A stretch of DNA of 64,000 nucleotides from Mycobacterium sp. SMC-4 (GTDB lineage Bacteria; Actinomycetota; Actinomycetes; Mycobacteriales; Mycobacteriaceae), in contig NZ_CP079869.1 in the NCBI RefSeq assembly GCF_025263265.1, positions 1,984,001-2,048,000 of the forward strand, read 5' to 3'. The notes under the pieces are model-generated. The model ran no database searches, was not told where the DNA came from, and was given only the letters and a program-made list of their open reading frames with translations. The position numbers and the translations under genes were made by a program. Shown piece after piece: positions 25,958 through 37,367 of the stretch. Position 1 is the first letter of the stretch; every line of letters begins with the position of its first letter.

Positions 25958-26335
25958 ATGGTTGCGTACGTGACCGGAACACAGAGTCGCGGCGAACTCG
26001 GGGCTTGGGGCGAGCAACTGGCCGTTGACTATCTTCAGCGGATTGGACTCTCTGTGCTGCAACGTAATTGGCGGTGCCGCTACGGCGAGCTGGACATCAT
26101 CGCTGCCGAGCTCAACACGGTGGTTTTCGTCGAGGTGAAAACCCGTGCCGGTGATCAGTTCGGCGGGGCGGTCACCGCGGTCACCCCGGCCAAGCTGCGG
26201 CGGTTGCGCCGCCTGGCCGGGCTGTGGCTGGCGGGCCAGGACCGCAGCTGGGCGCACATACGAATCGACGTGATCGCCATTCAGGCGGGGCGACGCCGGG
26301 ATCCGGAGATCACCCATCTACAGGCGGTGGCGTGA
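25958..26335 (+). CDS. yraN: YraN/UPF0102 family protein
   Basis: A 125-aa protein with the endonuclease-fold hallmarks of UPF0102: RNWRCRYGELDIIA and VVFVEVKTRAGDQFGGA, containing the E-x-D and E-V-K residues of a restriction-endonuclease-like site. ATG 25958 is used; GTG 25970 is an alternative. It overlaps the comM ATG (ATGA), the same yraN-comM coupling seen across mycobacteria. Confidence 0.85.
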   Translation: MVAYVTGTQSRGELGAWGEQLAVDYLQRIGLSVLQRNWRCRYGELDIIAAELNTVVFVEVKTRAGDQFGGAVTAVTPAKLRRLRRLAGLWLAGQDRSWAHIRIDVIAIQAGRRRDPEITHLQAVA

Positions 26336-26787
26336 TGGCGTTGGGGCGGGCGTTCTCGGTGGCGGTGCGCGGTGTCGACGGTGAAATCGTCGAGATCGAG
26401 GCAGATATCTCCTCGGGTCTGCCGGGTGTGCATCTGGTCGGCCTGGGAGACACGGCCTTGCAGGAGTCGCGCGATCGGGTGCGCGCGGCCATTTCCAACT
26501 GCGGTTTCGATTGGCCCAAGACCCGGCTGACGCTGGCGTTGTCGCCGGCAACCCTGCCGAAAGTGGGGTCGGTTTATGACCTGGCGCTGGCCACGGTGGT
26601 GCTGGCCGCCCAAGGGAGGAAAAGCTGGCCTGGCTTGGAGAAGACGGTGTTGCTCGGTGAGCTCGCCCTCGACGGCCGGGTGCGGCCGATCAAAGGGGTG
26701 CTGCCGGCAGTGCTGGCCGCTCGCAAACACGGCTGGCCCGCCGCTGTGGTGCCCATCGACAACCTGGCCGAACCGACATATGAGTAA
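26335..26787 (+). pseudogene. comM: comM 5' fragment, interrupted by the island
   Basis: The first 144 codons are ComM/YifB (Mg-chelatase-like AAA+ helicase, which aids branch migration during natural transformation): ALGRAFSVAVRGVDGEIVEIEADIS, SGLPGVHLVGLGD. Then island sequence adds a few codons and a stop at 26785-26787. The fragment lacks the ATPase motifs, which are at 35164-36237. Excision at the GCCGA core would rejoin both parts in frame as 501 residues. The intact 5' coding sequence shows no decay, which fits a recent or reversible insertion. Confidence 0.9.
26750..26786. other. attL junction
   Basis: Left of the core the sequence is comM (codons for PIDNL); right of it is island. 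The core shared with attR is GCCGA at 26767-26771, within CT-x-GCCGA. The rebuilt attB, AACCTGGCCGAGGCCAGCC and its flanks, is an imperfect palindrome, as expected for a large serine integrase. Confidence 0.8.
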
Positions 26788-26802
26788 AGACAGTTATTGC
26801 GG

Positions 26803-26808
26803 TATGAT
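26803..26808 (+). promoter_or_regulatory. -10 box for leaderless integrase mRNA
   Basis: TATGAT lies seven bases before ATG 26816, the spacing expected if transcription starts on the A of the start codon. No ribosome site precedes ATG 26804, 26807 or 26816, which supports leaderless initiation at 26816. The promoter is about 30 bp inside attL. Confidence 0.5.
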
Positions 26809-26815
26809 GCTCCGC

Positions 26816-28249
26816 ATGTCTAGAACGAAAGAAACGCCGAGGTCAGCGGCTATATATGCGCGTATCAGCCGGGATCGGCGGGGTGCTGGTCTTGGTGTGC
26901 AACGGCAAGAGCAAGAGTGCCGCGACCTTGCGGCGCGGCTCGGGTGGGGAGTCGCGGAGGTCTATGCCGACAACGATCTGTCGGCGTACAGCGGTAAGCG
27001 GCGACCGGAGTATGAGCGGATGCTTGCGGACGTGGCGGCGGGTCGGGTCGGTGCGGTGCTGGCGTGGCACACTGACCGGCTTCACCGTTCGCCGGTCGAG
27101 TTGGAGCGGTATATCGACGTGTGTGAGGGGCGGCGGGTGCCGACGCACACGGTCCAGGCGGGACCGATTGATCTGGCAACGCCGTCAGGGCGCATGGTGG
27201 CCCGACAGTTGGGTGCGGTGGCCCGGTATGAAAGCGAAGTGAAGACGGAGCGGTTGAGGTCAACGATGCGTCAGCAAGCGGCGCTGGGGAAGTACCACGG
27301 AGGCAGTCGGCCATTCGGCTATGAGAAAGACGGTGTGACCGTTGTGCCGGAGGAAGCCGCCGAGATTGCGAAGGCGGCGAGCGCGGTCGCGGGCGGTGAA
27401 AGTTTGCGGAGCGTTGTCCGTGATCTGAACGTGCGGGGTGTGCCGACAGCTACCGGCAAGGTGGGCAAGTGGACTTCGCAACAGTTACGAGAATTGTTGC
27501 TACGCCCACGCATTGCGGGGCTATCGAGTCACAACGGTGAGGTGGTCGGTGCCGCCCAGTGGCCCGCGATTATTGACGAGCCGTTGTGGCGGGCGGTCGT
27601 GGCGGTGCTGAGCAACCCGGCGCGTCAGACGAATGTGGGCCGCGCTGGGACGGCCAAATGGTTGGGGTCGGGTTTGTATGTGTGCGGTGTGTGCGATGAG
27701 CGGCAGATGCGGGTCAGTCTCGGAAAGTCGGGCGCTGACAGCCGTATCCCGATGTATCGGTGCAATAACCGGGATGCGGTTCCCGGTCGGCACGTGACCC
27801 GCAACGCGGTCGCGCTGGACACGTTCGTTGAGGAATTGGTGATCGAACGGTTGAGCCGACCGGGTGAGGTCGAACGGCTGACGCGGCGCGATGACACGGT
27901 GGACACCTCGAAACTTCGCGCCGAGCATGTGGAGATCGCGGAGCGTAAGGACGAGCTGGCGGCGTTGTTCGGTGACGGCACCATCGACGCGGGCCAGTTC
28001 GCCACCGCGAGCAAGCGGCTGAGCGCACGCGAGGACGAGATAACGGACGCGCTGGCGTCGGCGGGATGGCGGTCGCCGCTGGCACCGCTGGCGGGCGGCG
28101 ACGTTCGGGAGTTGTGGGCGGGTCTGACGTTGGGTGCGAAACGGGCGATCCTGTCCACGGTCGTGGACATTGTGGTGTTGCCGAGCAAGCGTCAGCCGAA
28201 GGGCTGTATCGACCCTAACGCGGTCGGGGTGCGTTGGCGTATCGACTGA
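26816..28249 (+). CDS. int: Large serine integrase (resolvase/invertase family)
   Basis: A 477-aa recombinase. The N-terminal resolvase domain has Ser18 in YARISRDRRGAGLGVQRQ and the DRLHRSPVELE helix. The recombinase domain follows (~170-280). A zinc ribbon with CGVC ... C lies near ~290-330, then a coiled-coil (~360-420) and a C-terminal strand ending VGVRWRID. Layout and several stretches resemble the phiRv1 integrase (469 aa). It should recombine attP with the comM attB without host factors and excise with a directionality factor, probably the HTH protein at 34698-34901. Confidence 0.92.
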   Translation: MSRTKETPRSAAIYARISRDRRGAGLGVQRQEQECRDLAARLGWGVAEVYADNDLSAYSGKRRPEYERMLADVAAGRVGAVLAWHTDRLHRSPVELERYIDVCEGRRVPTHTVQAGPIDLATPSGRMVARQLGAVARYESEVKTERLRSTMRQQAALGKYHGGSRPFGYEKDGVTVVPEEAAEIAKAASAVAGGESLRSVVRDLNVRGVPTATGKVGKWTSQQLRELLLRPRIAGLSSHNGEVVGAAQWPAIIDEPLWRAVVAVLSNPARQTNVGRAGTAKWLGSGLYVCGVCDERQMRVSLGKSGADSRIPMYRCNNRDAVPGRHVTRNAVALDTFVEELVIERLSRPGEVERLTRRDDTVDTSKLRAEHVEIAERKDELAALFGDGTIDAGQFATASKRLSAREDEITDALASAGWRSPLAPLAGGDVRELWAGLTLGAKRAILSTVVDIVVLPSKRQPKGCIDPNAVGVRWRID

Positions 28250-28251
28250 AC

Positions 28252-28282
28252 GGCCCGCCCATAGGGGAGCGATGGACGGGCC
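28252..28282. terminator. Hairpin between convergent int and the next leftward gene
   Basis: GGCCCGCCCAT (28252-28262) pairs with ATGGACGGGCC (28272-28282) with one mismatch and a 9-nt loop. It lies in the 41-bp gap between the integrase stop and a convergent gene, so it probably works as a bidirectional terminator. Confidence 0.55.
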
Positions 28283-28290
28283 GACACTAC

Positions 28291-28608
28291 TTACGACGCA
28301 GCGGTGGGTGTCTCGGTTCCCCTCAGTTTTCGCCGCGCATGGATAAGCCGGTCGCCGCGCAAGGTGTAGACGATGGTGCCGTCACGGGGCGGGGTGTGTT
28401 CGGGCGGTAGCTCATGCCGGTACACGGCGGTCACGTCCGCACCGTCGAGCAAGGCGTCGACCCGGTCACGCTGACGCTGTAGCTCGGGGCCAAAGTTGTA
28501 CCAGTCGCACTCGGCGGCGGCGAGACGGGCCACCTCGGCGCGGACCTTGCCGATGAGGTGCTCGCGGAGACCGTGCGCGACGGCGGGGTCGCGGTCAGCC
28601 CGTGGCAC
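28291..28608 (-). CDS. Island protein of unknown function (105 aa)
   Basis: Not recognised. It starts at GTG 28608, overlapping the preceding gene by 14 bp. The first half is helical and charged (VRAEVARLAAAECDWYNFGPELQRQRDRVDALL); the second half looks like short beta strands (DGTIVYTLRGDRLIHARRKLRG). The coupling with the gene at 28595-28963 suggests a shared role. A phage-type regulatory or packaging accessory is possible but unproven. Confidence 0.55.
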   Translation of the reverse strand: MPRADRDPAVAHGLREHLIGKVRAEVARLAAAECDWYNFGPELQRQRDRVDALLDGADVTAVYRHELPPEHTPPRDGTIVYTLRGDRLIHARRKLRGTETPTAAS

Positions 28609-28963
28609 CGCGATCCTTCGCCCAGCGGGACAGCGCGGCGTGTTGCGCGCGGCGGCTCCGCTGACTCACGGGCTTGGGGGTGGGGTCGTCGGTGCTGATC
28701 TGTTTCAGCAACCGCGCCACCAGCCCGTCGCACAGCCGAATTTCCGTCGACAACCGGCACAGGTTCTTCGCGTCGGTCGGGTCAGTGTTGTCATACCGCC
28801 CTTGCAAGTGGACCCGGCGGTCAACTGTCGCGGCGATCATGTCGAGGTGTTGCCGCTCGGCGGGTGTCCACGACAACCGCACACCAGCGGCCTCCGCAGA
28901 CTTCGACAGCTCCGAATCCAGTTCCGCGAGCAGCTGTTCCGCCTCCCGCGACCGCTTCACCAT
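28595..28963 (-). CDS. Possible small terminase subunit-like protein (122 aa)
   Basis: A helical, charged protein. The stretch TPAERQHLDMIAATVDRRVHLQ, then LSTEIRLCDGLVARLLKQI and the C-terminal RSRRAQHAALSRWAKD, resembles small actinobacterial prophage proteins often called terminase small subunits. ATG 28963 is preferred over a start 42 bases upstream because a TATTCT -10-like hexamer lies at 28976-28971, again at leaderless spacing. If it is TerS, it would redirect a helper phage's large terminase, because the island has none. Moderate confidence only. Confidence 0.5.
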   Translation of the reverse strand: MVKRSREAEQLLAELDSELSKSAEAAGVRLSWTPAERQHLDMIAATVDRRVHLQGRYDNTDPTDAKNLCRLSTEIRLCDGLVARLLKQISTDDPTPKPVSQRSRRAQHAALSRWAKDRGATG

Positions 28964-29035
28964 AAGACCGAGAATAACCCTGGCAACCCCCGAAACGAAC
29001 GCCAACTACGTCCAGAGCACAATCCACAGTCCTGG

Positions 29036-29182
29036 CCGTGGGGGGTTTTGGTGCCGGGGAGGGGGTGGTGCCGGGGGTGGTGTTTTGGGTGGCTGTGTGG
29101 CTGTGTGCGGGTCGTTTGTGGTTGGTGTGGGGTGGTGGTGGCTGGGCGGGTGTGGGGTGGCTGTGAGCGGGGTGGGGTGAGG
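29036..29182. other. Strand-asymmetric G/T-rich spacer
   Basis: About 145 bp in which the + strand is almost free of A and very rich in G and T, with many G runs (GGGGGG, GGGGAGGGGG, GTGGGG). It lies between the leftward gene at 28963 and the rightward zinc-finger/WhiB unit and holds no gene. It could be an origin-type unwinding or G-quadruplex region, or a promoter-control element. The rest of the gap 28964-29253 contains the TGTCCA palindrome and the start region of the rightward unit. Confidence 0.5.
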
Positions 29183-29198
29183 TGTCCAGTTTTGGACA
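29183..29198. promoter_or_regulatory. TGTCCA-GTTT-TGGACA palindrome, candidate operator 1
   Basis: Perfect 6-bp arms with a 4-bp spacer, about 55 bp upstream of the GTG at 29254. The same arms, extended to 11 bp, occur at 30376-30402. These two sites bracket the rightward transcription unit. Confidence 0.5.
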
Positions 29199-29253
29199 GT
29201 GGTGGTGTGGATTAGGTTGGTGTGCAGCTTGTCTATCGTGCGCGGAGACGGCG

Positions 29254-29558
29254 GTGAGGAAGCCGGTGAAGGTGTGCGAACAGAGTGCGGGGGCGAGTTC
29301 ACGGCGGCGCGACGAGATGCCCGGTTCTGTTGTGGCCGTTGCCGGGTGGCCGCGCACCGTGCCCAGTCTGTCGAGTCGCACGCAACGTCACAGCGGAGAA
29401 GGCAACGGGGCAACACGAGCCCGCCAGAACTAGCGGGCACCGAACGACGTTGTCTGACTTCGCTCGTGAGTGCTGACGTGGGCGTGGGAAAGCGTGAGAA
29501 GAATGTCGTGATCCCGTGCCGAATTGAGCGCGGTGGTCGATGCTTGACGGTGTGTTGA
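29254..29558 (+). pseudogene. Small zinc-finger protein gene with an internal frameshift
   Basis: GTG 29254 has GGAG seven bases upstream and reads RKPVKVCEQ. The rest of a typical actinobacterial zinc-finger, CGGEFTAARRDARFCCGRC then RVAAHR, follows in another frame from TGC 29286. Dropping the two bases AG at 29284-29285 would join them as the expected C-x2-C followed by C-x2-C and give about 100 aa, ending 19 bp inside the WhiB-like gene. The break may be a true mutation, a sequencing error, or a frameshift site. Proteins of this kind are common in phages and plasmids; their roles are unknown. Confidence 0.55.
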
Positions 29559-29956
29559 GCCGTGAGGGCCGGTGTCGGCGGGTGGCGCGTCAGCGTGGGT
29601 GGTCGGTGTTGGTGCGGCGGTCGGTGCCGGGGCTGTATGGGTTGCGGCAACCTCACAGCAGGTGTCGCATCGACCTCGACATCACCGCCCTAGAAGCGGC
29701 GCTCGGTATCGGCCCGGTACCGACCTCAGCTCCGACGTGGATGGCATTGGCCGCGTGTCGCGGCGTAGACCCTGAGACGTTCTACCCGCCCCGAGGTGAC
29801 CGCGCGGCGGTCCAGCGGGCACGCAAGGTCTGTCGCCGGTGCCCAGTCGCTGTGGAGTGTCTGGCCTTCGCGGTGGAGCGTCGTGATCCGTTCGGTGTGT
29901 GGGGCGGCACGACTCGCAACGAGCGCGTGGCCCTGCGTCGGGAGTCGGCACACTGA
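29540..29956 (+). CDS. WhiB-like iron-sulfur regulator, phage type
   Basis: The four WhiB cysteines are present: Cys73 (AACRGVDPETFYPP), Cys98, Cys101 (CRRCPV) and Cys107 (ECLAFA). The GVWGG turn (119-123) is also present, followed by a basic tail (RNERVALRRE). These bind a 4Fe-4S cluster, and the tail contacts DNA or sigma factor. The start is uncertain because about 60 atypical residues precede the domain; ATG 29540 is used, and several in-frame GTG/TTG codons are possible. Mycobacteriophage TM4 encodes a WhiB protein that represses host whiB2 and blocks superinfection, so a similar exclusion role is plausible here. Confidence 0.85.
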   Translation: MLDGVLSREGRCRRVARQRGWSVLVRRSVPGLYGLRQPHSRCRIDLDITALEAALGIGPVPTSAPTWMALAACRGVDPETFYPPRGDRAAVQRARKVCRRCPVAVECLAFAVERRDPFGVWGGTTRNERVALRRESAH

Positions 29957-30048
29957 GTTGTCGGCGTGTCTGACCGTGTCGTGACCGGATGGTCGCTTAC
30001 CATCTACGCAGGCCCCTCCACCGTTTTCCCGAGAGAGAAGGTGGGACA

Positions 30049-30327
30049 TTGGTCGCCACAGCGAAATCACTGTTGCTTGAACTTCAACGCCGGGGTTACG
30101 GCGGTTCATGGGGTCATACCAAAGAGGGTGCTGATTGCACGATCCTTCGAGGCCCGAACGGCAGGATCGACCCGCCGTTCGTCATTCACCGACGTAACCC
30201 GCTGTACCCAGACAACGGCGACTTCTGGTGGAAGCTCGGATCGACTGTTCACCGCGTACCCCTCGACACGGACACGTCCCAACTGGCGGACGCATTGATC
30301 GCGTCGTTGGAGGAGGCCGGAGTCTGA
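30049..30327 (+). CDS. Island protein of unknown function (92 aa)
   Basis: Not recognised. Start TTG 30049 is favoured because AAGGTGGG lies just upstream; a longer in-frame version from 29989 is possible. The N-terminus is helical (ATAKSLLLELQRRGYGG) and the middle has many Trp/Gly residues (GDFWWKLGSTVHRVPL). It ends about 50 bp before the large palindrome at 30376. It is probably co-transcribed with the WhiB-like gene. Confidence 0.55.
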   Translation: MVATAKSLLLELQRRGYGGSWGHTKEGADCTILRGPNGRIDPPFVIHRRNPLYPDNGDFWWKLGSTVHRVPLDTDTSQLADALIASLEEAGV

Positions 30328-30375
30328 CCGTTCACAACGGTGGGCACAATTCGCGGAGCGGTTCCCACTGAGGAC

Positions 30376-30402
30376 AAGGTGTCCAACGTGTTTGGACACC
30401 TT
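30376..30402. promoter_or_regulatory. 11-bp palindrome AAGGTGTCCAA / TTGGACACCTT, candidate operator 2
   Basis: Perfect arms (30376-30386 and 30392-30402) with a 5-bp spacer CGTGT. The inner TGTCCA/TGGACA arms match the site at 29183-29198. It may be a repressor operator or a terminator of the rightward unit; the shared half-site favours a protein-binding site. The remainder of 30328-30632 holds two further hairpins and no gene I can support. Confidence 0.5.
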
Positions 30403-30491
30403 CGGTTCGTGGACCCAGGTCAAAGCGAACTTGCCGAAACCGCCTACGTCTCAGCCTTAGCCGAAGCGACAGGCCCGTTTGTCGACACCAA

Positions 30492-30534
30492 AGCGCCCCG
30501 ACGTGGTGTGCCTGATTGAACACGTCGGGGCGCT
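30492..30534. terminator. Strong hairpin between convergent units
   Basis: AGCGCCCCGACGTG (30492-30505) pairs perfectly with CACGTCGGGGCGCT (30521-30534) across a 15-nt loop. It lies between the rightward unit ending at 30327 and the leftward capsid gene ending at 30633, where a bidirectional terminator is expected. No T tract. Confidence 0.6.
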
Positions 30535-30587
30535 GGCCCGCCCACCGGCCTCGTTGAAGGAGGAGTGAGGAACCCCGAGGCAGTGGG

Positions 30588-30626
30588 CGGGTGGCCGGTG
30601 CTATGGCTGATGGAACCGGCCACCCG
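30588..30626 (-). terminator. Hairpin directly after the capsid gene
   Basis: CGGGTGGCCGGT (30588-30599) pairs perfectly with ACCGGCCACCCG (30615-30626) with a 15-nt loop, six bases after the capsid stop on the minus strand. It is a likely terminator of the leftward operon. Confidence 0.6.
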
Positions 30627-30632
30627 TGTCTA

Positions 30633-31496
30633 TCAGCTTCCGCCGACGCCGACCGCGACGATGGCTTGCTGGTGTGGGAATCCGAACCCGACACGGCAGG
30701 TGACCCGGACGGCCAGCGAATCGGAGCCGAAGAAATAGTCAGTGCTCACGTCGAGGGTCACGTCACGCCGGATCACCACGAACACCTTCGCCTTGTCGAC
30801 GGCCCACACCCGTCCATCGGGGAGGTTGGTGCCGTCCGCGACCGACACTAGGGGCACGCCGAGCACGCTGTCGGCCACGGCTTTGGTGGCATCGCCGACC
30901 GTGGACGCCAGCAAGGGTTGGTTGCTGTTGGCCTCGGTTTTGAGGGTTTCGATGTCAGCGACGGTGTCAGCGGCGGCAACGAACGCGGTGGCGGTGGAGC
31001 CGACCTTGCGCAGTTTCGTCTTAGCTTCGACGGCCCAGTCGAGGTTGGTGAACGCCGATCCGGCGGTGACGAACTGGGTGTCGGCCAGGGATTGCAACCC
31101 GCTGGGTCCGTTGGTGACGCTGTCTCCGAAAAACGCGCTGTCGATTCGTCTCGCAACGCTTCGGGCGAGGGATGCCTGGACGACGGCGGTCGCCTCGGGC
31201 GAGCTGTCCTGAGCCAGTTCGGAACTGACTTTCACCAGCGCGGCGACCTTGAGCGGTCGGACGACGAGTTCTCGGGTGACGGGGTCGGTCAGGTCGATGT
31301 CGAAGCCTTCGGGCACCCACGCGGCGGCAGCATCTATGTCCACGATGGGGATGCGGAAGTCGCGGGCGTTGGTGTTGACGACGGTTGCGACTTCGGGCCG
31401 CAGGGCGACGGATTCGTCTTGGATCGGGCGGGTGATGAGTTCGCCGACTTCCTCGGGGGTGAGGATGCCGGATGCAGCGTCGGACAGGAAAGCCAT
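30633..31496 (-). CDS. HK97-fold major capsid protein
   Basis: The 287-aa protein matches the phage_capsid pattern: N-terminal EEVGELITRPIQDESVALR, the middle ARDFRIPIVDIDAAAAWVPEGFDI, VKVSSELAQDSSPEATAVVQASLARSVARRIDSAFFGD (the conserved spine-helix region) and a C-terminal FFGSDSLAVRVTCRVGFGFPHQQAIV. It has only a very short N-arm (no ~100-residue delta domain), consistent with a separate scaffold protein. GAAGG lies ten bases before the ATG. It is the last gene of the leftward operon. Shell protein for a small or helper-dependent particle is inferred. Confidence 0.9.
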   Translation of the reverse strand: MAFLSDAASGILTPEEVGELITRPIQDESVALRPEVATVVNTNARDFRIPIVDIDAAAAWVPEGFDIDLTDPVTRELVVRPLKVAALVKVSSELAQDSSPEATAVVQASLARSVARRIDSAFFGDSVTNGPSGLQSLADTQFVTAGSAFTNLDWAVEAKTKLRKVGSTATAFVAAADTVADIETLKTEANSNQPLLASTVGDATKAVADSVLGVPLVSVADGTNLPDGRVWAVDKAKVFVVIRRDVTLDVSTDYFFGSDSLAVRVTCRVGFGFPHQQAIVAVGVGGS

Positions 31497-31562
31497 TGTC
31501 GGAACCTTCGGTAAGGCAACGACGGTGGGCCGTCCCGCTGTGGGGACAGCCAGCGTCGTTGT

Positions 31563-31730
31563 TCAGTTACCGCAGACGCCGACCGGCTGGCCTACGTCAG
31601 CCCGACCGGGCCGAAAGCCGAATTGCCCTACCGGGCAACCGTTGTCAGCGATCTTACCGCCGTCCTCGGACAGCCCCTTGGAGCAAGTCTTGAAAGCTCT
31701 TTGTCTTCGCGTCGGACAGGTCGGGGACAC
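31563..31730 (-). CDS. Possible 55-codon ORF overlapping the scaffold 3' end
   Basis: A GTG-started frame overlaps the last 77 bases of the scaffold-like gene in another frame. It continues through most of the gap to the capsid gene and ends PVGVCGN. It has five Cys and no ribosome site of note. It might be a small coupled gene or a frameshift extension of the scaffold. Equally it may be chance. The gap also contains a nested stem (31517-31524 with 31554-31561, inner GTCCC/GGGAC) in the capsid leader. Confidence 0.25.
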   Translation of the reverse strand: MSPTCPTRRQRAFKTCSKGLSEDGGKIADNGCPVGQFGFRPGRADVGQPVGVCGN

Positions 31731-32193
31731 CTCGGGCGGTCACCGCGCTGGCGGGCGCAGCGGCATGGACTCCATGCCGCTTGGATAGGTGGGGGTGCTG
31801 TTGGACGACAACAGTGAGAGCGGCGTGCACCAGCCCGGGGTCGACATCGCCGTGCGCGTCTCGCAGTTCGGCCAGCGGTGGCCCGTAATGCGTGAAGTCG
31901 GAGGGATCGTGAAGCCGGTCGCTTACCAGCGATTCGACCTCTCGTTGCTGGACGGTGTCCAGGCGGCTTTGAAGGTGGTCGCGTTCGGCGGTCAGCGTCT
32001 CGATGGTGCTGGCGTGTTCGCGGGCCTTGGCTTTCCACCATTCGAGGGAGCGGGGCGCTGGTGGCTTGTCCTCTTCGGCAGCCGGCGGCTGGTCCTCGGT
32101 GGGAGTGTCCGTCACATCGGTGTCCTGGGGTGGTGGGGTGGTTCGTGCGTCTCCGGGCGTCTCGGAGCCAGGAGCGGGGGTGTGGGTCGTCAT
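31654..32193 (-). CDS. Probable capsid scaffolding protein
   Basis: A 179-aa protein with a Pro/Thr/Asp-rich disordered N-terminus (~1-48), a coiled coil (SLEWWKAKAREHASTIETLTAERDHLQSRLDTVQQREVE, ~50-85) and a small basic helical C-terminus. This layout, directly upstream of a major capsid gene, is typical of actinophage scaffolds. Start ATG 32193 overlaps the previous gene by 4 bp. No protease motif is seen. Assignment rests on architecture and position. Confidence 0.65.
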   Translation of the reverse strand: MTTHTPAPGSETPGDARTTPPPQDTDVTDTPTEDQPPAAEEDKPPAPRSLEWWKAKAREHASTIETLTAERDHLQSRLDTVQQREVESLVSDRLHDPSDFTHYGPPLAELRDAHGDVDPGLVHAALTVVVQQHPHLSKRHGVHAAAPASAVTARGVPDLSDAKTKSFQDLLQGAVRGRR

Positions 32194-32408
32194 TGGTCCT
32201 CCAAAGATTGTTGGTGCAAGGCGATTTCGATGGTCCGGTACAGGAAAGCGAGGGTGACGTGCCCCTGCAAGTGATTGAGGCGGGCGACAGCGGCGAACAG
32301 GCGAGGATCACGGTCACGCGCCGCGATCACCGCCAGTTCAGCCATCAGCCGCTCCTCGTCATGGAGCCGGATGCCGGTTGCCCGGTCGATGTCATGGCCG
32401 TTATCCAT
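32190..32408 (-). CDS. Island protein of unknown function (72 aa)
   Basis: A short helical protein (LMAELAVIAARDRDPRLFAAVARLNHLQGHVTLAFLYRTIEIAL). It overlaps both neighbours by 4-8 bp, which strongly supports it as a translated gene in the leftward operon. No function is recognised. Confidence 0.6.
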   Translation of the reverse strand: MDNGHDIDRATGIRLHDEERLMAELAVIAARDRDPRLFAAVARLNHLQGHVTLAFLYRTIEIALHQQSLEDQ

Positions 32409-32697
32409 CGTCTCGTGTGGCGGTGCGGCGGGCGATGTCCTCGGCTTCCTCGGCGGCGTAGCGTGCGATGGCCCGTTCGAGCCGCTTCATGGCCTCCTCG
32501 TCGCCACGCAGCTTGAGAATCTCGGCAAGCTGGGCGCACAGCGCCGCGAGGAGGTGGTAGCCGCGATGTTCCTCGGTGGCCTCAGCAGTGAGGTAGCCCA
32601 GCATTCGAAGGTCATTTTGCACCCAGGCGCGTACGGCCATACCTGCCCGCTTACGGTCACCGGCGGTGGGGTTCGGATCAAGGTCTGGCACAGTCAT
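32401..32697 (-). CDS. Island protein of unknown function (98 aa)
   Basis: ATG 32697 overlaps the stop of the preceding gene (ATGA); a longer in-frame extension to 32784 is rejected for that reason. The protein is helical with a central VQNDLRMLGYLTAEATEEHRGYHLLAALCAQLAEILKL and a charged tail. Function not recognised. Confidence 0.6.
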   Translation of the reverse strand: MTVPDLDPNPTAGDRKRAGMAVRAWVQNDLRMLGYLTAEATEEHRGYHLLAALCAQLAEILKLRGDEEAMKRLERAIARYAAEEAEDIARRTATRDDG

Positions 32698-32930
32698 ACG
32701 TTCGATTCCCCCTTTGAGGTTGCCCGCCAGGTCAAGTCTTGGGTGCTGGGATCGAAGCCCATGACGAGTTCGCCTCGGTGCCACATGTTTAGCGCGGCAG
32801 CGTCGACGTACATGTCGGATAGTCGGTCACACGCCGCCCGAACGTCATTCTCAGACAGTGGGCCATCTCCCAGTATCTCCGTGAGGAACCGCTTCTGGTC
32901 CACCTGCGTGATGAAGTTGGTATCGGTCAT
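32694..32930 (-). CDS. Island protein of unknown function (78 aa)
   Basis: A small acidic protein (FITQVDQKRFLTEILGDGPLSENDVRAACDRLSDMYVDAAALNMWHRGEL). It starts 24 bp after the RepA-like gene stop and overlaps the next gene by 4 bp. Not recognised. Context suggests an accessory to replication or a lead-in to the structural genes. Confidence 0.6.
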   Translation of the reverse strand: MTDTNFITQVDQKRFLTEILGDGPLSENDVRAACDRLSDMYVDAAALNMWHRGELVMGFDPSTQDLTWRATSKGESNV

Positions 32931-32954
32931 CGGTAGTGATTCCTCTCTTTGTGT

Positions 32955-34217
32955 TCATCTTTCTTCTCGCCAGACGCGGTAGGCGCGGTTGGCGCGGTCT
33001 TTGTTGCACCGCAGTACCTTCCGTGCGTCTTCGGCGGTTCTCGGTGGCGGGTCAGCGGCGTTGAGTAGTGCAATGTCGGCGGGGTCGGCGGTTTCGTCGG
33101 GGTCGCGGTCGCAACGTGACGGGTTGAGGACACGCCACGGGCCGAGGCCGGTGCTGACCTCGTAGTCGGTCGCGAGGACGAACGTGCCAGCCGATTGCTC
33201 GGAGCCGTGCTCGGGTCGTGCCGCGTGACGACGGACGCCGCCGTGCCGGTCCTTGTTGACGAGTAACAGGGCGGTACCACCGTTGCCGGGACTGAACGGG
33301 CGGGTGGCTTTCACGCGCAGCGAAGTACCGCCCAGCGCACGGCGTTTTGCGGCGGTGCCGCCTGGACCCTTGGCGCGACTGTCGTTGTTCTTCGCGAGGT
33401 GGTCAATCGCGATGACGGCGGCACCAGCGCGGGCGAGCGGTTTAAGCACGTTCGTGTGGGCGCGAGTGAAGTCGTCGGCGTTGTTGGAGTCGGCCTTGAG
33501 AGTCGGAAGCAGCTCACCAATTGAATCCACGACCGCGACCGTGGGTTGCCAGTCCTTGCAATCCTTGACCACCTCGAAGATGTCGAGAGCACTTTCCGGT
33601 TCGCAGTACCGGAAGCGGTTGAGGTCGGCGAGCGCGGCGCGGTTCGCGCCCAGCATGAGCAATCGAGCGACAGTGGCCTCGACGCCGTTGTGGTCGAGGT
33701 CCAACACGAGGGCGGTGCGGCCCGCGTTGAGCGCTTCGACGGTGGCGGCGAGTGCAACGAATGTCTTGCCAGATTCGGGGTCGCCGAACAGGACGTTGAC
33801 CTGTCCTCGGTAGAGAAGCCGGTGCCCGTCGATTCGTTGCAGCAAGTCCGGTTCGGGTGGCTCGGGTAGTTTGCCCGCAAGCAATGCGGCCACGTCGAAG
33901 TAGCGAGGCGGCGTGTTGATTTCAGCGTCCCAGGACCGAGGACCGGACCCCTTAGTCCTGTTTTCGGTCCTGGCATGTTTGCGCTGGTCAGTGCTATGCG
34001 GGTTTTCGTCAGGACTCTCACAGGACCGAGCGGACCCTACGCCAGGACCGCCTACCGAGTCCGGACCGAGTCCGGAGTCCGCTGTTTGCTCGTCAGGTGG
34101 TTCCGGACCGGGGTCGTCGGGATGCACGTCATGCAGGGCTTGGCCGTTGTGGCGGGCCTGAGCCGCGTAATACTCAGCCCGTTCCTTGCCGTAGGCGGGG
34201 TCGGAGTAGTTCTTCAC
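32955..34217 (-). CDS. RepA-like/AAA_25 P-loop ATPase (RecA-fold helicase type)
   Basis: A 420-aa protein. About 95 disordered, Asp/Pro/Ser-rich residues precede a RecA-fold core with Walker A GDPESGKT (Lys151), Walker B TVAVVDSIGE (Asp231) and an AIDHLAKNN sensor stretch near 275. A C-terminal tail (RTAEDARKVLRCNKDRANRAYRVW) looks like a DNA-binding helix pair. This is the RepA/AAA_25 pattern of plasmid and satellite replication helicases. It should drive island replication after excision. It overlaps the preceding gene by 4 bp. Confidence 0.75.
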   Translation of the reverse strand: MKNYSDPAYGKERAEYYAAQARHNGQALHDVHPDDPGPEPPDEQTADSGLGPDSVGGPGVGSARSCESPDENPHSTDQRKHARTENRTKGSGPRSWDAEINTPPRYFDVAALLAGKLPEPPEPDLLQRIDGHRLLYRGQVNVLFGDPESGKTFVALAATVEALNAGRTALVLDLDHNGVEATVARLLMLGANRAALADLNRFRYCEPESALDIFEVVKDCKDWQPTVAVVDSIGELLPTLKADSNNADDFTRAHTNVLKPLARAGAAVIAIDHLAKNNDSRAKGPGGTAAKRRALGGTSLRVKATRPFSPGNGGTALLLVNKDRHGGVRRHAARPEHGSEQSAGTFVLATDYEVSTGLGPWRVLNPSRCDRDPDETADPADIALLNAADPPPRTAEDARKVLRCNKDRANRAYRVWREER

Positions 34218-34564
34218 GCAGCCCCCCGGCGCGCCAAGTCCTCAAGACGGCTCCGGTGCTCGGGGAGTAGTCGCCACACGGCGCGGAGCGTGCGTGAATC
34301 GAACAGTGGTGCCACACCCAGGCTTTCGAGGTAGTTCGCGGCGGCGATCACGGCGTCGGCCTCGGCAAGCGTCATGTCTCCGTGACAGCGGTGTCGGTCG
34401 TGGTCCGGGTCGCGCACGCACCCGCACGGTTCCAGCGGCGGTAGCCGTAGAGCAGCGGTTCGGCGGGCACCGTTGGCGGGGCGGTGCGGTAGGCTTAGGT
34501 CCGCGTTTGTGCGACGTGTTCGGAGCGGGGCCGGTGGATTCGGCCCCGTTTCTGTTTTGGTCAT
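34214..34564 (-). CDS. Island protein with Cys/His cluster (116 aa)
   Basis: The middle contains CGCVRDPDHDRHRCHGD, a Cys/His-rich stretch that could bind zinc, followed by a helical MTLAEADAVIAAANYLESLG. The ATG overlaps the stop of the 46-codon gene and the stop overlaps the RepA-like gene start. Function unknown; a replication partner of the ATPase is inferred from coupling. Confidence 0.6.
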   Translation of the reverse strand: MTKTETGPNPPAPLRTRRTNADLSLPHRPANGARRTAALRLPPLEPCGCVRDPDHDRHRCHGDMTLAEADAVIAAANYLESLGVAPLFDSRTLRAVWRLLPEHRSRLEDLARRGAA

Positions 34565-34701
34565 TCGTAGTCGGTGTCCTCGGGGGTTACGCCCATAAGA
34601 AGCAGGCGGATACGGGTGATCTGGGCTTCGGTGAGCGGGGGCGCGTCCGCAACATGGCGGCGGATCGCTTCACGCTCGGCGTCGGTGAGGTGGCGGCTCA
34701 C
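34561..34701 (-). CDS. 46-codon gene, translationally coupled on both sides
   Basis: GTG 34701 overlaps the stop of the HTH gene (GTGA) and its own TGA overlaps the next ATG (ATGA). The peptide is SRHLTDAEREAIRRHVADA, then PPLTEAQITRIRLLLMGV and an acidic end. It is compact and helical, and its start and stop overlap both neighbours, so it is very probably real despite its size. LTEAQITRIRLLL-type peptides recur in actinophages. Function unknown. Confidence 0.65.
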   Translation of the reverse strand: MSRHLTDAEREAIRRHVADAPPLTEAQITRIRLLLMGVTPEDTDYE

Positions 34702-34901
34702 GACGCGGTGAGTGGGGTGGGGGTGACCATGCGTCGCACGTCGTCGCGGTGGACGAGGAATCGGCCCGCGCCGACTTGGAGGGCGCGGATTCGTCCCGAC
34801 TTAGCCCACCGTAGGACGGTCTTGTCGGTCGGAGTGTTGAGGCCGTCGCGGCTCAGTTCAGCGAGGACGCGGGAGATGCGGTCGAAGTCAGCAGGGTTCA
34901 T
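34698..34901 (-). CDS. xis: Excisionase-like HTH protein (candidate recombination directionality factor)
   Basis: A 67-aa MerR/HTH_17-type winged helix: TPTDKTVLRWAKSGRIRALQVGAGRFLVHRDDVRRMV. Proteins of this kind act as excisionases, and phiRv1 uses a small protein of this type to switch its serine integrase to excision. It is the first gene of the leftward operon, 262 bp inside attR. If it is the directionality factor, its expression controls comM restoration. An alternative is a plain operon regulator. Confidence 0.7.
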   Translation of the reverse strand: MNPADFDRISRVLAELSRDGLNTPTDKTVLRWAKSGRIRALQVGAGRFLVHRDDVRRMVTPTPLTAS

Positions 34902-35016
34902 CGGGGGGCGGTCCTTAGCGGCTCAGCGGTCAGTTACGCGCCGTTCCGCTGTTCCAGCCTCACCCGTTCGGTGGCGTCAGTGGCTTACCGCCAAGTACCG
35001 GACGTGACGCCCGCCC

Positions 35017-36237
35017 GTGTTCAGAAGACTAGCCCTCGTCGGACCCTTCGGGCAAGACCGACATAGCCGACAAAGTGGCTGTGAGAGAACAGGTTCCGTG
35101 TCATTCTGTGTACTACGCGATCACAACTGTCGGTATTTGTGGGTTTGTCTCAATTCAAGACTCGCCGAGGCCAGCCTGGTCGACGGGATCGAGGTGTGGG
35201 GTGCACGCACCCTGCGCCAGTTGCACACATGGTTGCGGGGCAGGGGGGAGCTCGACGGCCGGATCGACCATCCCGCCCAGAGTCCGGACTGCGCCATGGA
35301 TCTGGCCGACGTGGTGGGCCAGCCGCAGGCCCGTTTCGCCGTGGAGGTGGCTGCCGCCGGAGGGCACAACCTGATGATGACCGGACCACCGGGCGTGGGA
35401 AAGACCATGTTGGCGCAGCGGCTGCCCGGCCTGTTGCCGGCGTTGTCGCACACCGAGGCGCTCGAGGTCACCGCGATCCACTCGGTGGCCGGGATGCTCA
35501 GTGGACAGGCCCCGCTGATCACCCGGCCACCGTTTGTGGCACCGCATCACACTTCCAGTGTCGCCGCACTTGTCGGCGGCGGCTCGAACATGGCCCGCCC
35601 TGGCGCGGTCAGCCGGGCCCACCGCGGCGTGCTCTTCCTCGACGAGTTCGCCGAGATCACCACCAGCGCATTGGAGGCGTTGAGAACGCCACTGGAAGAC
35701 GGTCATATTCGGTTGGCCCGCCGCGACGGCGTGGCAACCTATCCGTGCCGCATCCAGCTGGTGCTTGCGGCCAACCTGTGTCCGTGCGCACCGCCGGACC
35801 CGCGGGACTGCCAATGCGGAGCCACTGAACGGCGGCGATACCGCAGCAAGCTCTCCGGCCCACTCCTCGATCGTGTCGACCTTCGAGTGGAGATGCACAC
35901 GTCGCGCGCCGGGCCTTTCGTCGATACGGCGGAGGAGTCCACATCGGCTGTGCGTGAACGTGTCTGGGCTGCCCGCCAGGCGGCGCGAGAGCGCTGGCGA
36001 CCCTATGGCATCGCGACCAACGCCGAAGCCGGCGGGACGTTGCTCCGTCGAAAATTCCGACTCGGCGCCGAGGCGATGACCCCGGTGCGAACCGCTGTCG
36101 ACCGGGGCGCACTGAGCATTCGCGGGATGGACCGCACACTGCGCGTCGCGTGGAGCCTGGCCGACCTGGCCGGGCGGACGTCGCCGACCAAGCAGGATGT
36201 CGCCACGGCGCTCAGTTTCCGGCAGGGGACACACTGA
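35017..36237 (+). pseudogene. comM: comM 3' fragment with island-supplied N-terminal codons
   Basis: The host part, 35164-36237, encodes the AAA+ core of ComM: Walker A GPPGVGKTM, HRGVLFLDEF (Walker B), a Cys cluster (CPCAPPDPRDCQC) and the arginine-finger region. The open frame does not begin at the junction: 49 codons from GTG 35017 are island DNA and stay in frame. A truncated, chimeric ComM ATPase might therefore be made. The stop overlaps the dprA ATG, so this reading may also keep dprA translated. Confidence 0.85.
35146..35182. other. attR junction
   Basis: Island sequence runs up to the core GCCGA at 35164-35168, then comM resumes with codons for EASLVDG. The GCCGA copy is in the same comM codon phase as at attL. 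Confidence 0.8.
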
Positions 36238-37367
36238 TGGACAACACCGATCGCCGCGCCTGGGCGTACCTGTCGCGGATCTGCGAACCGCCCAATTCAT
36301 TTCTGGCCGAACTCGTCGGCGCGGAGGGACCGGTCGCAGCGGCGCAACGCATCCGGGCACGTCAGGTCGACGGTGAGCTTGCCCGCGTCACCGAAGCGCG
36401 CCATCACATCGACTCCAGCCACGCCGATCTCGAGGTGCTCGACCGACTCGGCGGACGTCTGATCACCCCCAGCGACGACGAATGGCCGCACCTGGCGTTT
36501 GCCTCCTTCGGCCGCCCGGCACTGGCGAAGCGGCCCTACGGACATCCTCCGCTGGTGCTGTGGGCGGTGGGTCCCTCCAACCTGACCGACGTCGCGGCGC
36601 GGTCGGCTGCGCTGGTGGGCACGCGGGCGGCCAGCCCATACGGCGAACACGTCACCGCCGAGTTCGCTGCCGGGCTGGCCGAGCGCGACGTGACGGTGGT
36701 CTCCGGCGGGGCCTACGGCATCGACGGAGCAGCACACCGTACGACGCTGGCCTGTGACGGGGACACCGTGGCGGTACTGGCCGCCGGTATCGATGTCCCC
36801 TACCCGTCAGGTCACTCGGCCTTACTGCACCGCATCGCCCGCAGCGGGCTGGTTCTCACCGAGTATCCGCCAGGAATGCGGCCCACCCGTCGGCAGTTCC
36901 TGGCACGCAACCGATTGGTCGCCGCGCTTTCCGGAGCCACAGTGGTGATGGAAGCCGGGGTACGCAGTGGCGCGGCCAACACCGCCGCGTGGGCCACCGC
37001 GCTGGGCCGTCAGGTGTGCGCCCTGCCTGGACCGGTGACCTCGGCGAGTTCGGCGGGATGCCACATCATGATCGCCAACGGCACCGCACGGTTGGTCACC
37101 CGCGCCGCCGACGTGGTCGAAGCCGTCGGCCGCGTCGGTGAGCTCGCGCCCGAACCGGATCGGCCCACCACCGAGCTCGACGGTCTCGACGACACCGAAT
37201 TGACGGTGTACGACGCAATACCGCGCCGAGGTGCCCGCACCGTGGCCGAGATCGCGATCCGGGCCGGTCTGCCGGTGGCCGACGTGTTGGGACCGCTGGC
37301 CATGCTCGATCTACGGGGATTGGTCCGACAGGGGGAGGACGGCTGGAAGCTGGCCAAACGTTCATGA
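36237..37367 (+). CDS. dprA: DNA-processing protein DprA (Smf)
   Basis: A 376-aa protein. The N-terminal helical part precedes the Rossmann-like DprA domain with VGTRAASPYGEH, VSGGAYGIDGAAH and ARNRLVAALSGATVVMEAG, then a C-terminal winged helix (TELTVYDAIPRRGARTVAEIAIRAG). It loads RecA on incoming single-stranded DNA during transformation. ATG 36237 overlaps the comM stop; longer starts lie inside comM. The island upstream separates it from the yraN-side promoter, so its expression may depend on a promoter in the island. Confidence 0.9.
   Translation: MDNTDRRAWAYLSRICEPPNSFLAELVGAEGPVAAAQRIRARQVDGELARVTEARHHIDSSHADLEVLDRLGGRLITPSDDEWPHLAFASFGRPALAKRPYGHPPLVLWAVGPSNLTDVAARSAALVGTRAASPYGEHVTAEFAAGLAERDVTVVSGGAYGIDGAAHRTTLACDGDTVAVLAAGIDVPYPSGHSALLHRIARSGLVLTEYPPGMRPTRRQFLARNRLVAALSGATVVMEAGVRSGAANTAAWATALGRQVCALPGPVTSASSAGCHIMIANGTARLVTRAADVVEAVGRVGELAPEPDRPTTELDGLDDTELTVYDAIPRRGARTVAEIAIRAGLPVADVLGPLAMLDLRGLVRQGEDGWKLAKRS

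What the first reader, a model, noticed from the sequence alone, without database searches (positions are those of the whole stretch)
26767..35163. Serine-integrase satellite inserted in comM
The island ends are defined to within a few bases because the comM halves rejoin in frame at GCCGA. Capsid, scaffold-like, RepA-like, excisionase-like and WhiB-like genes sit in 8.4 kb without tail, portal, large terminase or lysis genes. phiRv1 and phiRv2 use a REP13E12 repeat and a tRNA gene respectively, so comM targeting would make this a distinct lineage.
Basis: partly seen in the sequence, partly recalled or inferred. Interest (0 to 1): 0.8.

Follow-up and report, generated by a model that had tools for sequence, protein, structure and literature searches.

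The report
Small phage satellite inside comM
An 8.4-kilobase virus-like parasite, which carries its own shell protein but not the rest of a virus, has inserted itself precisely into a DNA-recombination gene of a mycobacterium; both the parasite type and the target gene are already known, but different parasites of this sort appear to have settled in that same gene more than once.

Summary
comM (yifB) is split by an 8,397-bp element, bases 26770-35166 (shiftable within the shared GCCGA). The nearest comM found (90% identical C-terminal part) is uninterrupted at exactly that codon. The element has an intact large serine integrase, an excisionase-like protein, a RecA/AAA_25-type ATPase, an HK97-type capsid, a scaffold-like protein (weak evidence) and a WhiB protein. 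No portal, large terminase, tail or lysis gene was found. It is best read as a capsid-only candidate phage satellite, the kind that includes phiRv1. The capsid module is shared with mycobacterial elements that have other integrases and sit elsewhere. comM is also a common home: 21 of the 80 integrase loci kept, and at least 9 of 92 mycobacterial genomes with a related integrase, have it against comM, at residues ~84, ~425 or ~474; among those examined only this element uses ~144. Capsid-bearing elements occur at three of these sites, with integrases from separate parts of the tree. Durrant et al. 2022 already report this gene as an enriched target of large serine recombinases, so this is a new member of a known kind. 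Mobility, helper phage and effect on recombination are inferred.

The parts
26335..26771 (+). comM 5' part (ChlI domain), ends at attL; its frame runs on into the element to a stop, giving a 150-aa product
26767..26771 (.). attL core GCCGA; predicted crossover dinucleotide GA at 26770-26771
   Evidence: choice of GA is inferred from the attB inverted repeat
26780..28249 (+). large serine integrase, 489 aa (start could be ATG 26816)
   Evidence: PF00239 7.3e-29, PF07508 1.3e-10; YARISRD motif; tree
28291..28608 (-). o105, unknown, overlaps o136; 64-68% in two cousin elements
   Evidence: no family hit
28595..29005 (-). o136 (about 122 aa from its likely start), unknown; conserved in cousin elements, no match in phage records; predicted all-helical
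29036..29185 (.). GT-rich tract (0.89 G+T, the most skewed 150 bp of the window)
29540..29956 (+). WhiB-family regulator, four-cysteine cluster plus GVWGG
   Evidence: (PF02467 1.6e-23)
29989..30327 (+). o112, unknown
   Evidence: no family
30633..31496 (-). HK97-type major capsid protein, 287 aa
   Evidence: PF05065 1.9e-26; phrog_10 4.5e-25
31654..32193 (-). scaffold-like protein directly upstream of the capsid gene
   Evidence: none; cousin L207 phrog_4708 scaffold 8e-4 and phrog_36941 protease 1.5e-4; position
32190..32408 (-). o72, unknown
32401..32694 (-). o97 (ORF 32401-32784), unknown; 79% in G109 element
32694..32930 (-). o78, unknown
32955..34217 (-). RepA-like AAA_25/RecA-type ATPase, 420 aa, Walker A GDPESGKT
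   Evidence: (PF13481 5.3e-9)
34214..34564 (-). o116, unknown; 69% in L207
34561..34701 (-). o46, small ORF
34698..34901 (-). excisionase-like HTH protein (candidate recombination directionality factor), 67 aa
   Evidence: (TIGR01764 4.2e-6, 27.0 bits against a cut-off of 28.8)
35164..35168 (.). attR core GCCGA (GA at 35167-35168)
35164..36237 (+). comM 3' part (AAA+ and C-terminal domains), stop overlaps the dprA start (TGATG)

Best explanation
This is an integrated, probably intact, capsid-only phage satellite of the mycobacterial candidate-PICI kind. Shown by sequence: a large serine integrase gene lies against one end, an excisionase-like gene near the other, and the host comM gene is cut at codon 144 within a 5-bp shared core. 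Inferred: (1) the integrase joins attP to the comM site CTGGCC-GA-GGCCAG, and with the excisionase-like protein reverses it, restoring comM; (2) the ATPase supports replication after excision; (3) the WhiB protein regulates the element; (4) the element's capsid and scaffold-like proteins build or reshape heads, while portal, terminase and tail come from an unknown helper phage; (5) while integrated, comM is inactivated, which may protect the element from replacement by recombination with an empty-site chromosome and may lower expression of the coupled dprA.
For: Junctions and empty site. Gene calls: 5, 6, 11, 46, 98. The host arms of the site form a perfect 6/6 inverted repeat round GA; as background, 1 of 1,417 positions inside the two comM halves does so. 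Of the 29 intact comM genes where the site was read (30 looked at), 13 have the identical 14 bases and 11 differ at one. Gene content too small for terL or portal: the open frames of 300 codons or more are the integrase, the ATPase and the capsid. Cousin elements with the same module: L207 (capsid 87%, scaf 62%, xis 73%, o116 69%, whiB 60%), L208, L209. Capsid relatives in 136 of 396 genomes of the genus (E<=1e-20).
Against: No excision, replication, particle or helper has been shown; no reads or sister strain of the host itself could be examined. Scaffold and excisionase assignments are weak. The inverted repeat fades outward in attB (11 of 20) and is poor in the predicted attP (3 of 6, 11 of 20). 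The nearest relative, G092, differs from the 14-base site at 3 positions. A capsid gene without portal or terminase might be used to interfere rather than to package. The one candidate packaging protein that I modelled, o136, has no significant fold match (best E 0.41).
Confidence: 0.82

Rival explanations
1. Remnant of a full temperate prophage that lost portal, terminase, tail and lysis genes by deletion and is now inert.
For: The capsid is phage-type; one comM element elsewhere (G072, L239) is a larger 17-kb element with terL, portal, protease and tape measure.
Against: A similar compact module recurs in three other mycobacterial genomes at other places (L207, L208, L209); integrase, ATPase, capsid and WhiB frames are intact; no phage record has a near match and o136 has no match in phage records.
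Confidence: 0.1
2. The element is a satellite, but its capsid protein acts as a decoy or size-redirecting subunit that poisons helper heads and is not the shell for its own DNA.
For: MCP and scaffold-like protein without portal or terminase; size redirection by satellites is known for SaPIs and P4 (PMC10690885 passages).
Against: The MCP covers nearly the whole PF05065 model and is well conserved, as expected of a working shell.
Confidence: 0.25
3. An ICE/AICE or mobilisable island that picked up a capsid gene.
For: Serine integrase, WhiB and a RepA-like ATPase also fit such islands.
Against: No transfer (FtsK/TraB, relaxase) family hit in any window protein scanned; the capsid and scaffold-like pair is conserved in cousins.
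Confidence: 0.03
4. Assembly artefact that joined unrelated contigs inside comM.
For: Reads are not available; the 5.58-Mb contig named is probably the window's own record, so it is no independent support.
Against: Both junctions fall on one codon, the halves match an intact relative without loss, and integrase and xis lie at the ends as expected.
Confidence: 0.02

Closest known systems
Mycobacterial candidate PICIs, including phiRv1 and phiRv2 (Abad et al. 2023, PMC10654092; abstract, passages and section 9 read)
   Same: Phage-like region with integrase and major capsid gene; some use serine integrases and sit outside tRNA genes; replication and scaffold genes noted there too.
   Different: This one sits in comM codon 144. 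That site is not in the passages and section read; their supplements were not available to me. phiRv1 uses a REP13E12 repeat (recalled).
Large serine recombinases that target the magnesium chelatase/ATP-dependent protease gene (Durrant et al. 2022, PMC10083194; passages read)
   Same: Same target gene family; [quoted passage not shown]
   Different: The passages describe the enzymes, not satellite elements; whether this codon-144 site is in their supplement was not checked.
Capsid-forming PICIs (definition taken from PMC10690885 passages)
   Same: Encode their own major capsid protein and depend on a helper for tails.
   Different: cf-PICIs also encode protease, portal, connectors and terminases; none was found here. 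The comM element of G126 (L220), with terL, portal and capsid, fits better.
comM-inserted elements of gamma-proteobacteria (Croucher et al. 2016, PMC4774983; 2024 PLoS Biol PMC11472951; passages read)
   Same: Mobile elements that break comM, interpreted as protection from transformation-mediated loss.
   Different: Different hosts; 'Actinobacteria' and 'Mycobacterium' occur 0 times in both held texts. Natural transformation is not established in mycobacteria (recalled).
Wolbachia phage sr1WO (PMC9203015, passages read)
   Same: Recombinase inserts into the magnesium chelatase gene.
   Different: A phage of an unrelated host.

Membership tests
[quoted passage not shown]
   criterion
Mycobacterial candidate PICI (Abad 2023 criterion) | induction or packaging by a helper phage | not testable with these tools
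   the paper also says not yet shown experimentally
Capsid-forming PICI | own major capsid protein | tested here: met
Capsid-forming PICI | own portal, head protease, connectors and large terminase | tested here: not met
   no such family hit among window proteins; no further open frame of 300 codons or more; the scaffold-like cousin has a weak protease PHROG hit, 1.5e-4
Capsid-forming PICI | own small terminase | tested here: inconclusive
   o136 is conserved and helical but has no family or significant fold match
phiRv1-type element | insertion in a REP13E12 repeat | tested here: not met
   insertion is in comM; the 53%-identical integrase of G230 does sit against a DUF222 gene (the 13E12 link is recalled)
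phiRv1-type element | direct sequence kinship to phiRv1 proteins | not tested
   no named phiRv1 record was fetched
Large serine integrase | Resolvase plus Recombinase domains, catalytic serine | tested here: met
   YARISRD
Large serine integrase | short shared core inside an imperfect dyad in attB | tested here: met
   GCCGA core, 6/6 arms round GA, 11/20 over longer arms
Complete temperate prophage | terminase, portal, tail and lysis genes | tested here: not met

The most novel reading that the evidence does not exclude
Small mycobacterial satellites that carry capsid and scaffold-like genes but neither portal nor terminase are a satellite strategy of their own, with o136/o105 as an unrecognised packaging or interference pair. 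Capsid-bearing elements have moved into comM at least three times, by integrase replacement at three different codons, because breaking this recombination helicase (and perhaps its coupled neighbour dprA) stops the host from recombining them out.
Probability: 0.2. Interest if true: 0.6.

Novelty: new member of a known kind. Interest (0 to 1): 0.4.

Why it matters
It gives a base-resolved attachment site at codon 144, one of four positions in comM at which I saw related serine integrases, and a clean case of one capsid module riding on different integrases. The presence of capsid-bearing elements in comM at three codons, with integrases from separate parts of the tree, makes the idea that satellites gain from disabling comM testable in actinobacteria; the two papers on that idea whose passages I read do not mention Mycobacterium or Actinobacteria.

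Tried and rejected
o136 as a small terminase: suggested by its C-terminal basic motif and conservation (recalled resemblance). The AlphaFold model was fair (pLDDT 81.9, pTM 0.63, 11 rows), but Foldseek against PDB gave nothing at E<=0.001; the Sf6 small terminase appeared only at rank 27 with E 3.2. No phage match. Not claimed.

A comM interruption in G017 was suspected from a short open frame, but its contig ends inside comM. G052, G110 and G136 have comM in two adjacent pieces with no large insert and were not counted as insertions. G141 and G299 lose or split comM near residues 408-429, unresolved. L154 lacks a match to the first 62 residues of ComM, not followed.

Looking for the same codon-144 insertion in relatives: no other integrase locus breaks comM there (112 of the 117 tree rows have DNA, the window included). 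The two closest integrases, P0002 (M. elephantis, 74%) and P0003 (M. seoulense, 67%), have no DNA available here, so their sites are unknown. A search of 148 relatives of G092 gave 2 matches, both already known; every genome shown had been seen before (126 were not shown). A repeat (GTGTCCA-N4-TGGAC) is shared with L207 only (1 of 248 loci). No Rfam family reached its threshold in 26000-36500.

Print: searches listed no paper that, by title and abstract start, is about a satellite in comM of a mycobacterium (listings were capped at 10-20 rows for the larger results); preprints, most subscription papers and supplements are not held.
Full report
What is there. The window holds yraN (UPF0102), comM and dprA in order. 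comM is split: residues 1-146 of an intact ComM match window 26335-26772, and the shared reading resumes as AEASLVDG at the codon starting at 35167 (the second match is extended by chance back to 35116). The two junctions share GCCGA (26767-26771; 35164-35168), so the insert is 8,397 bp. The left comM piece ends in a stop inside the element, giving 150 aa. There the sequence runs ...NLAEASLVDG... without a break. In all 30 best comM loci fetched the two parts are contiguous at this codon; in one of them (L154) the first 62 residues are not matched. No genome is held for the window itself.

Attachment site. The left and right host arms of the junction, compared separately, form a perfect 6-bp inverted repeat round GA (CTGGCC-GA-GGCCAG); as background, 1 of 1,417 positions inside the two comM halves does so. 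The repeat fades outward (11 of 20), and the predicted attP arms match poorly (3 of 6, 11 of 20). Of 30 intact comM genes, the site was read in 29: 13 are identical over 14 bases, 11 differ at one, 3 at two and 2 at three, G092 among the last. GA as the crossover dinucleotide is my inference from how large serine integrases work.

Genes. Integrase: Resolvase and Recombinase domains, catalytic motif YARISRD. On the opposite strand from the far end run an excisionase-like HTH protein (TIGR01764, 27.0 bits against a cut-off of 28.8), o46, o116, an AAA_25/RecA-type ATPase, o78, o97, o72, a scaffold-like protein and the HK97-type capsid. A WhiB protein with a four-cysteine cluster and o112 lie between; o136 and o105 lie by the integrase. 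The open frames of 300 codons or more inside the element are the integrase, the ATPase and the capsid, which leaves no room for a large terminase or portal of usual size. o72, o78, o97, o105, o112, o116 and o136 have no convincing family. The scaffold-like assignment rests on position and a weak hit of a cousin.

Relatives of the module. The capsid search returned 123 proteins, of which the 120 listed run from 100% to 37% identity. In 396 genomes drawn from the genus of M. setense, 136 have a capsid match at E<=1e-20; the weaker of these may be other kinds of capsid. The closest element, L207 (G214, contig length equal to that of the M. pulveris capsid record), shares capsid 87%, scaffold-like 62%, xis 73%, o116 69%, whiB 60%, o105 64% and o136 43%. 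Its integrase is only 34% identical, lies next to xis, and abuts a reading frame with a DAP_DH_C domain. L209 (G061) has o136 77%, o105 68% and capsid 46% with a tyrosine integrase. L208 (G109) has capsid 81%; no integrase was identified there. L210 (G230) has a 53% integrase and a 49% capsid, the integrase against a DUF222 gene. So the body of the element is shared and the integrase, hence the site, is exchanged.

comM as a target. The genome-contig scan kept 80 loci of 276 relatives. Of these 80, 21 have the integrase against a comM piece: 20 at about residue 84 and one (L065) at about 425; both comM halves are within the locus in 4 of the 21. Two of the 21 (L011, L012) have the same integrase sequence. 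In the genus scan, 92 of 396 genomes have an integrase match at E<=1e-60. Nine of these 92 have it within about 250 bp of an interrupted comM (G003, G004, G021, G072, G115, G126, G202, G308, G343); the other 83 were not all checked one by one. Seven of the nine are at about residue 474, with both halves seen in six. The comM scan itself matched 378 of 396 genomes; its place list was cut after the best matches, and 87 look-ups were made by handle (16, 71), so the count of broken comM genes is a lower bound. Four more genomes have comM split by 16-26 kb inserts at about residues 303-350 without a related serine integrase (G124, G313, G327, G389). Of the ORFs scanned near their ends, G327 and G389 have a tyrosine-recombinase catalytic domain, G313 only the N-terminal SAM-like domain, and the two G124 ORFs none.

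Integrase tree. In a quick maximum-likelihood tree of 117 integrases, the seven comM-474 rows form one fully supported group. The 19 comM-84 rows need three changes of label (two forced by starred branches) against the other labelled rows. Counting 'other' as a state too, 11 changes are needed. The window row groups with P0002 and P0003 (99) and then G230 (97), apart from the comM-84 and comM-474 rows. Rows with unknown or other sites (89 of 117) are uncounted in the group tests, and the tree is a short search, so the number of separate arrivals is approximate.

Capsid-bearing elements in comM. A PF05065 search of 27 genomes with comM-inserted integrases found matches in 17. By coordinates, those inside the comM element are G476/L080 (site 84) and G072, G115 and G126 (474); G003 (84) and G343 (474) have one a few kilobases from the integrase on a contig that ends before the far junction. 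With the window that is seven elements at three sites. In the other matching genomes the match lay elsewhere or could not be placed. They differ: G126 also has large terminase and portal; G072 is a 17-kb element with terminase, portal, protease and tape measure; L080 and G115 carry a second integrase (phrog_1; tyrosine type by recall) at the far end; G003 has a head protease. So capsid-only content is shown for the window and its non-comM cousins, not for all seven. G021 at site 474 has no capsid in the element but a primase and a DNA methyltransferase. L008, L038 and L048, at site 84, have no PF05065 match in their genomes; L038 has a tape-measure protein.

What is known. Abad et al. 2023 (PMC10654092; abstract, passages and section 9) define mycobacterial candidate PICIs by integrase plus capsid, note serine-integrase examples, and place phiRv1 and phiRv2 among them. 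Durrant et al. 2022 (PMC10083194; [quoted passage not shown] Croucher et al. 2016 (PMC4774983) and the 2024 study PMC11472951 (passages) describe comM-breaking elements in gamma-proteobacteria and the idea that this prevents loss by transformation. PMC9203015 (passages) reports phage WO in the Wolbachia magnesium chelatase gene. The cf-PICI definition is taken from PMC10690885 (passages). Thus neither the element type nor the target is new; codon 144 and capsid-bearing elements converging on comM did not appear in the listings and passages seen (searches named under Tried and rejected).

How it most likely works. Shown: precise split, intact recombination gene, capsid. Inferred: excision with the excisionase-like protein restores comM; the ATPase serves replication; heads are made of its own capsid with helper portal, terminase and tail. 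The comM stop overlaps the dprA start (TGATG), so insertion may also lower dprA expression; this is untested. The protective value of breaking comM is borrowed from work on transformable gamma-proteobacteria and may not hold in mycobacteria.

Noticed in passing
29036-29185: Most G+T-rich 150 bp of the window (0.89), just upstream of o136; a weaker tract (0.76) lies at the same place in L207 (6646). Could be an origin, packaging or regulatory tract.
   Followed up: partly
29183-29198 and 30376-30403: Two inverted repeats built on TGTCCA...TGGACA; the first recurs (GTGTCCA-N4-TGGAC) in cousin L207 only, the second is a long hairpin between o112 and the capsid gene.
   Followed up: partly
L222, L224, L225-L228 (G327, G124, G313, G389): 16-26 kb inserts in comM at residues ~303-350 with no related serine integrase; tyrosine-recombinase domains near the ends of G327 and G389, a SAM-like domain only in G313, none in two G124 ORFs scanned: another kind of element in comM.
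   Followed up: partly
L080:17947-18831 and L229:11229-12128: Capsid-bearing comM elements at two different sites both carry a second integrase (phrog_1) at the end opposite the serine integrase.
   Followed up: no
L236:8565-8654: A 30-residue comM fragment (residues 105-134, 83%) lies about 6.7 kb before an intact comM, downstream of a serine integrase gene.
   Followed up: no
L238 (G021): 10-kb comM-474 element without capsid but with primase and DNA methyltransferase genes.
   Followed up: no
L231 (G141), L232/L233 (G299), L154 (G026): comM lost or split near residues 408-429 in the first two, and unmatched before residue 63 in the third; nature of the breaks unresolved.
   Followed up: partly
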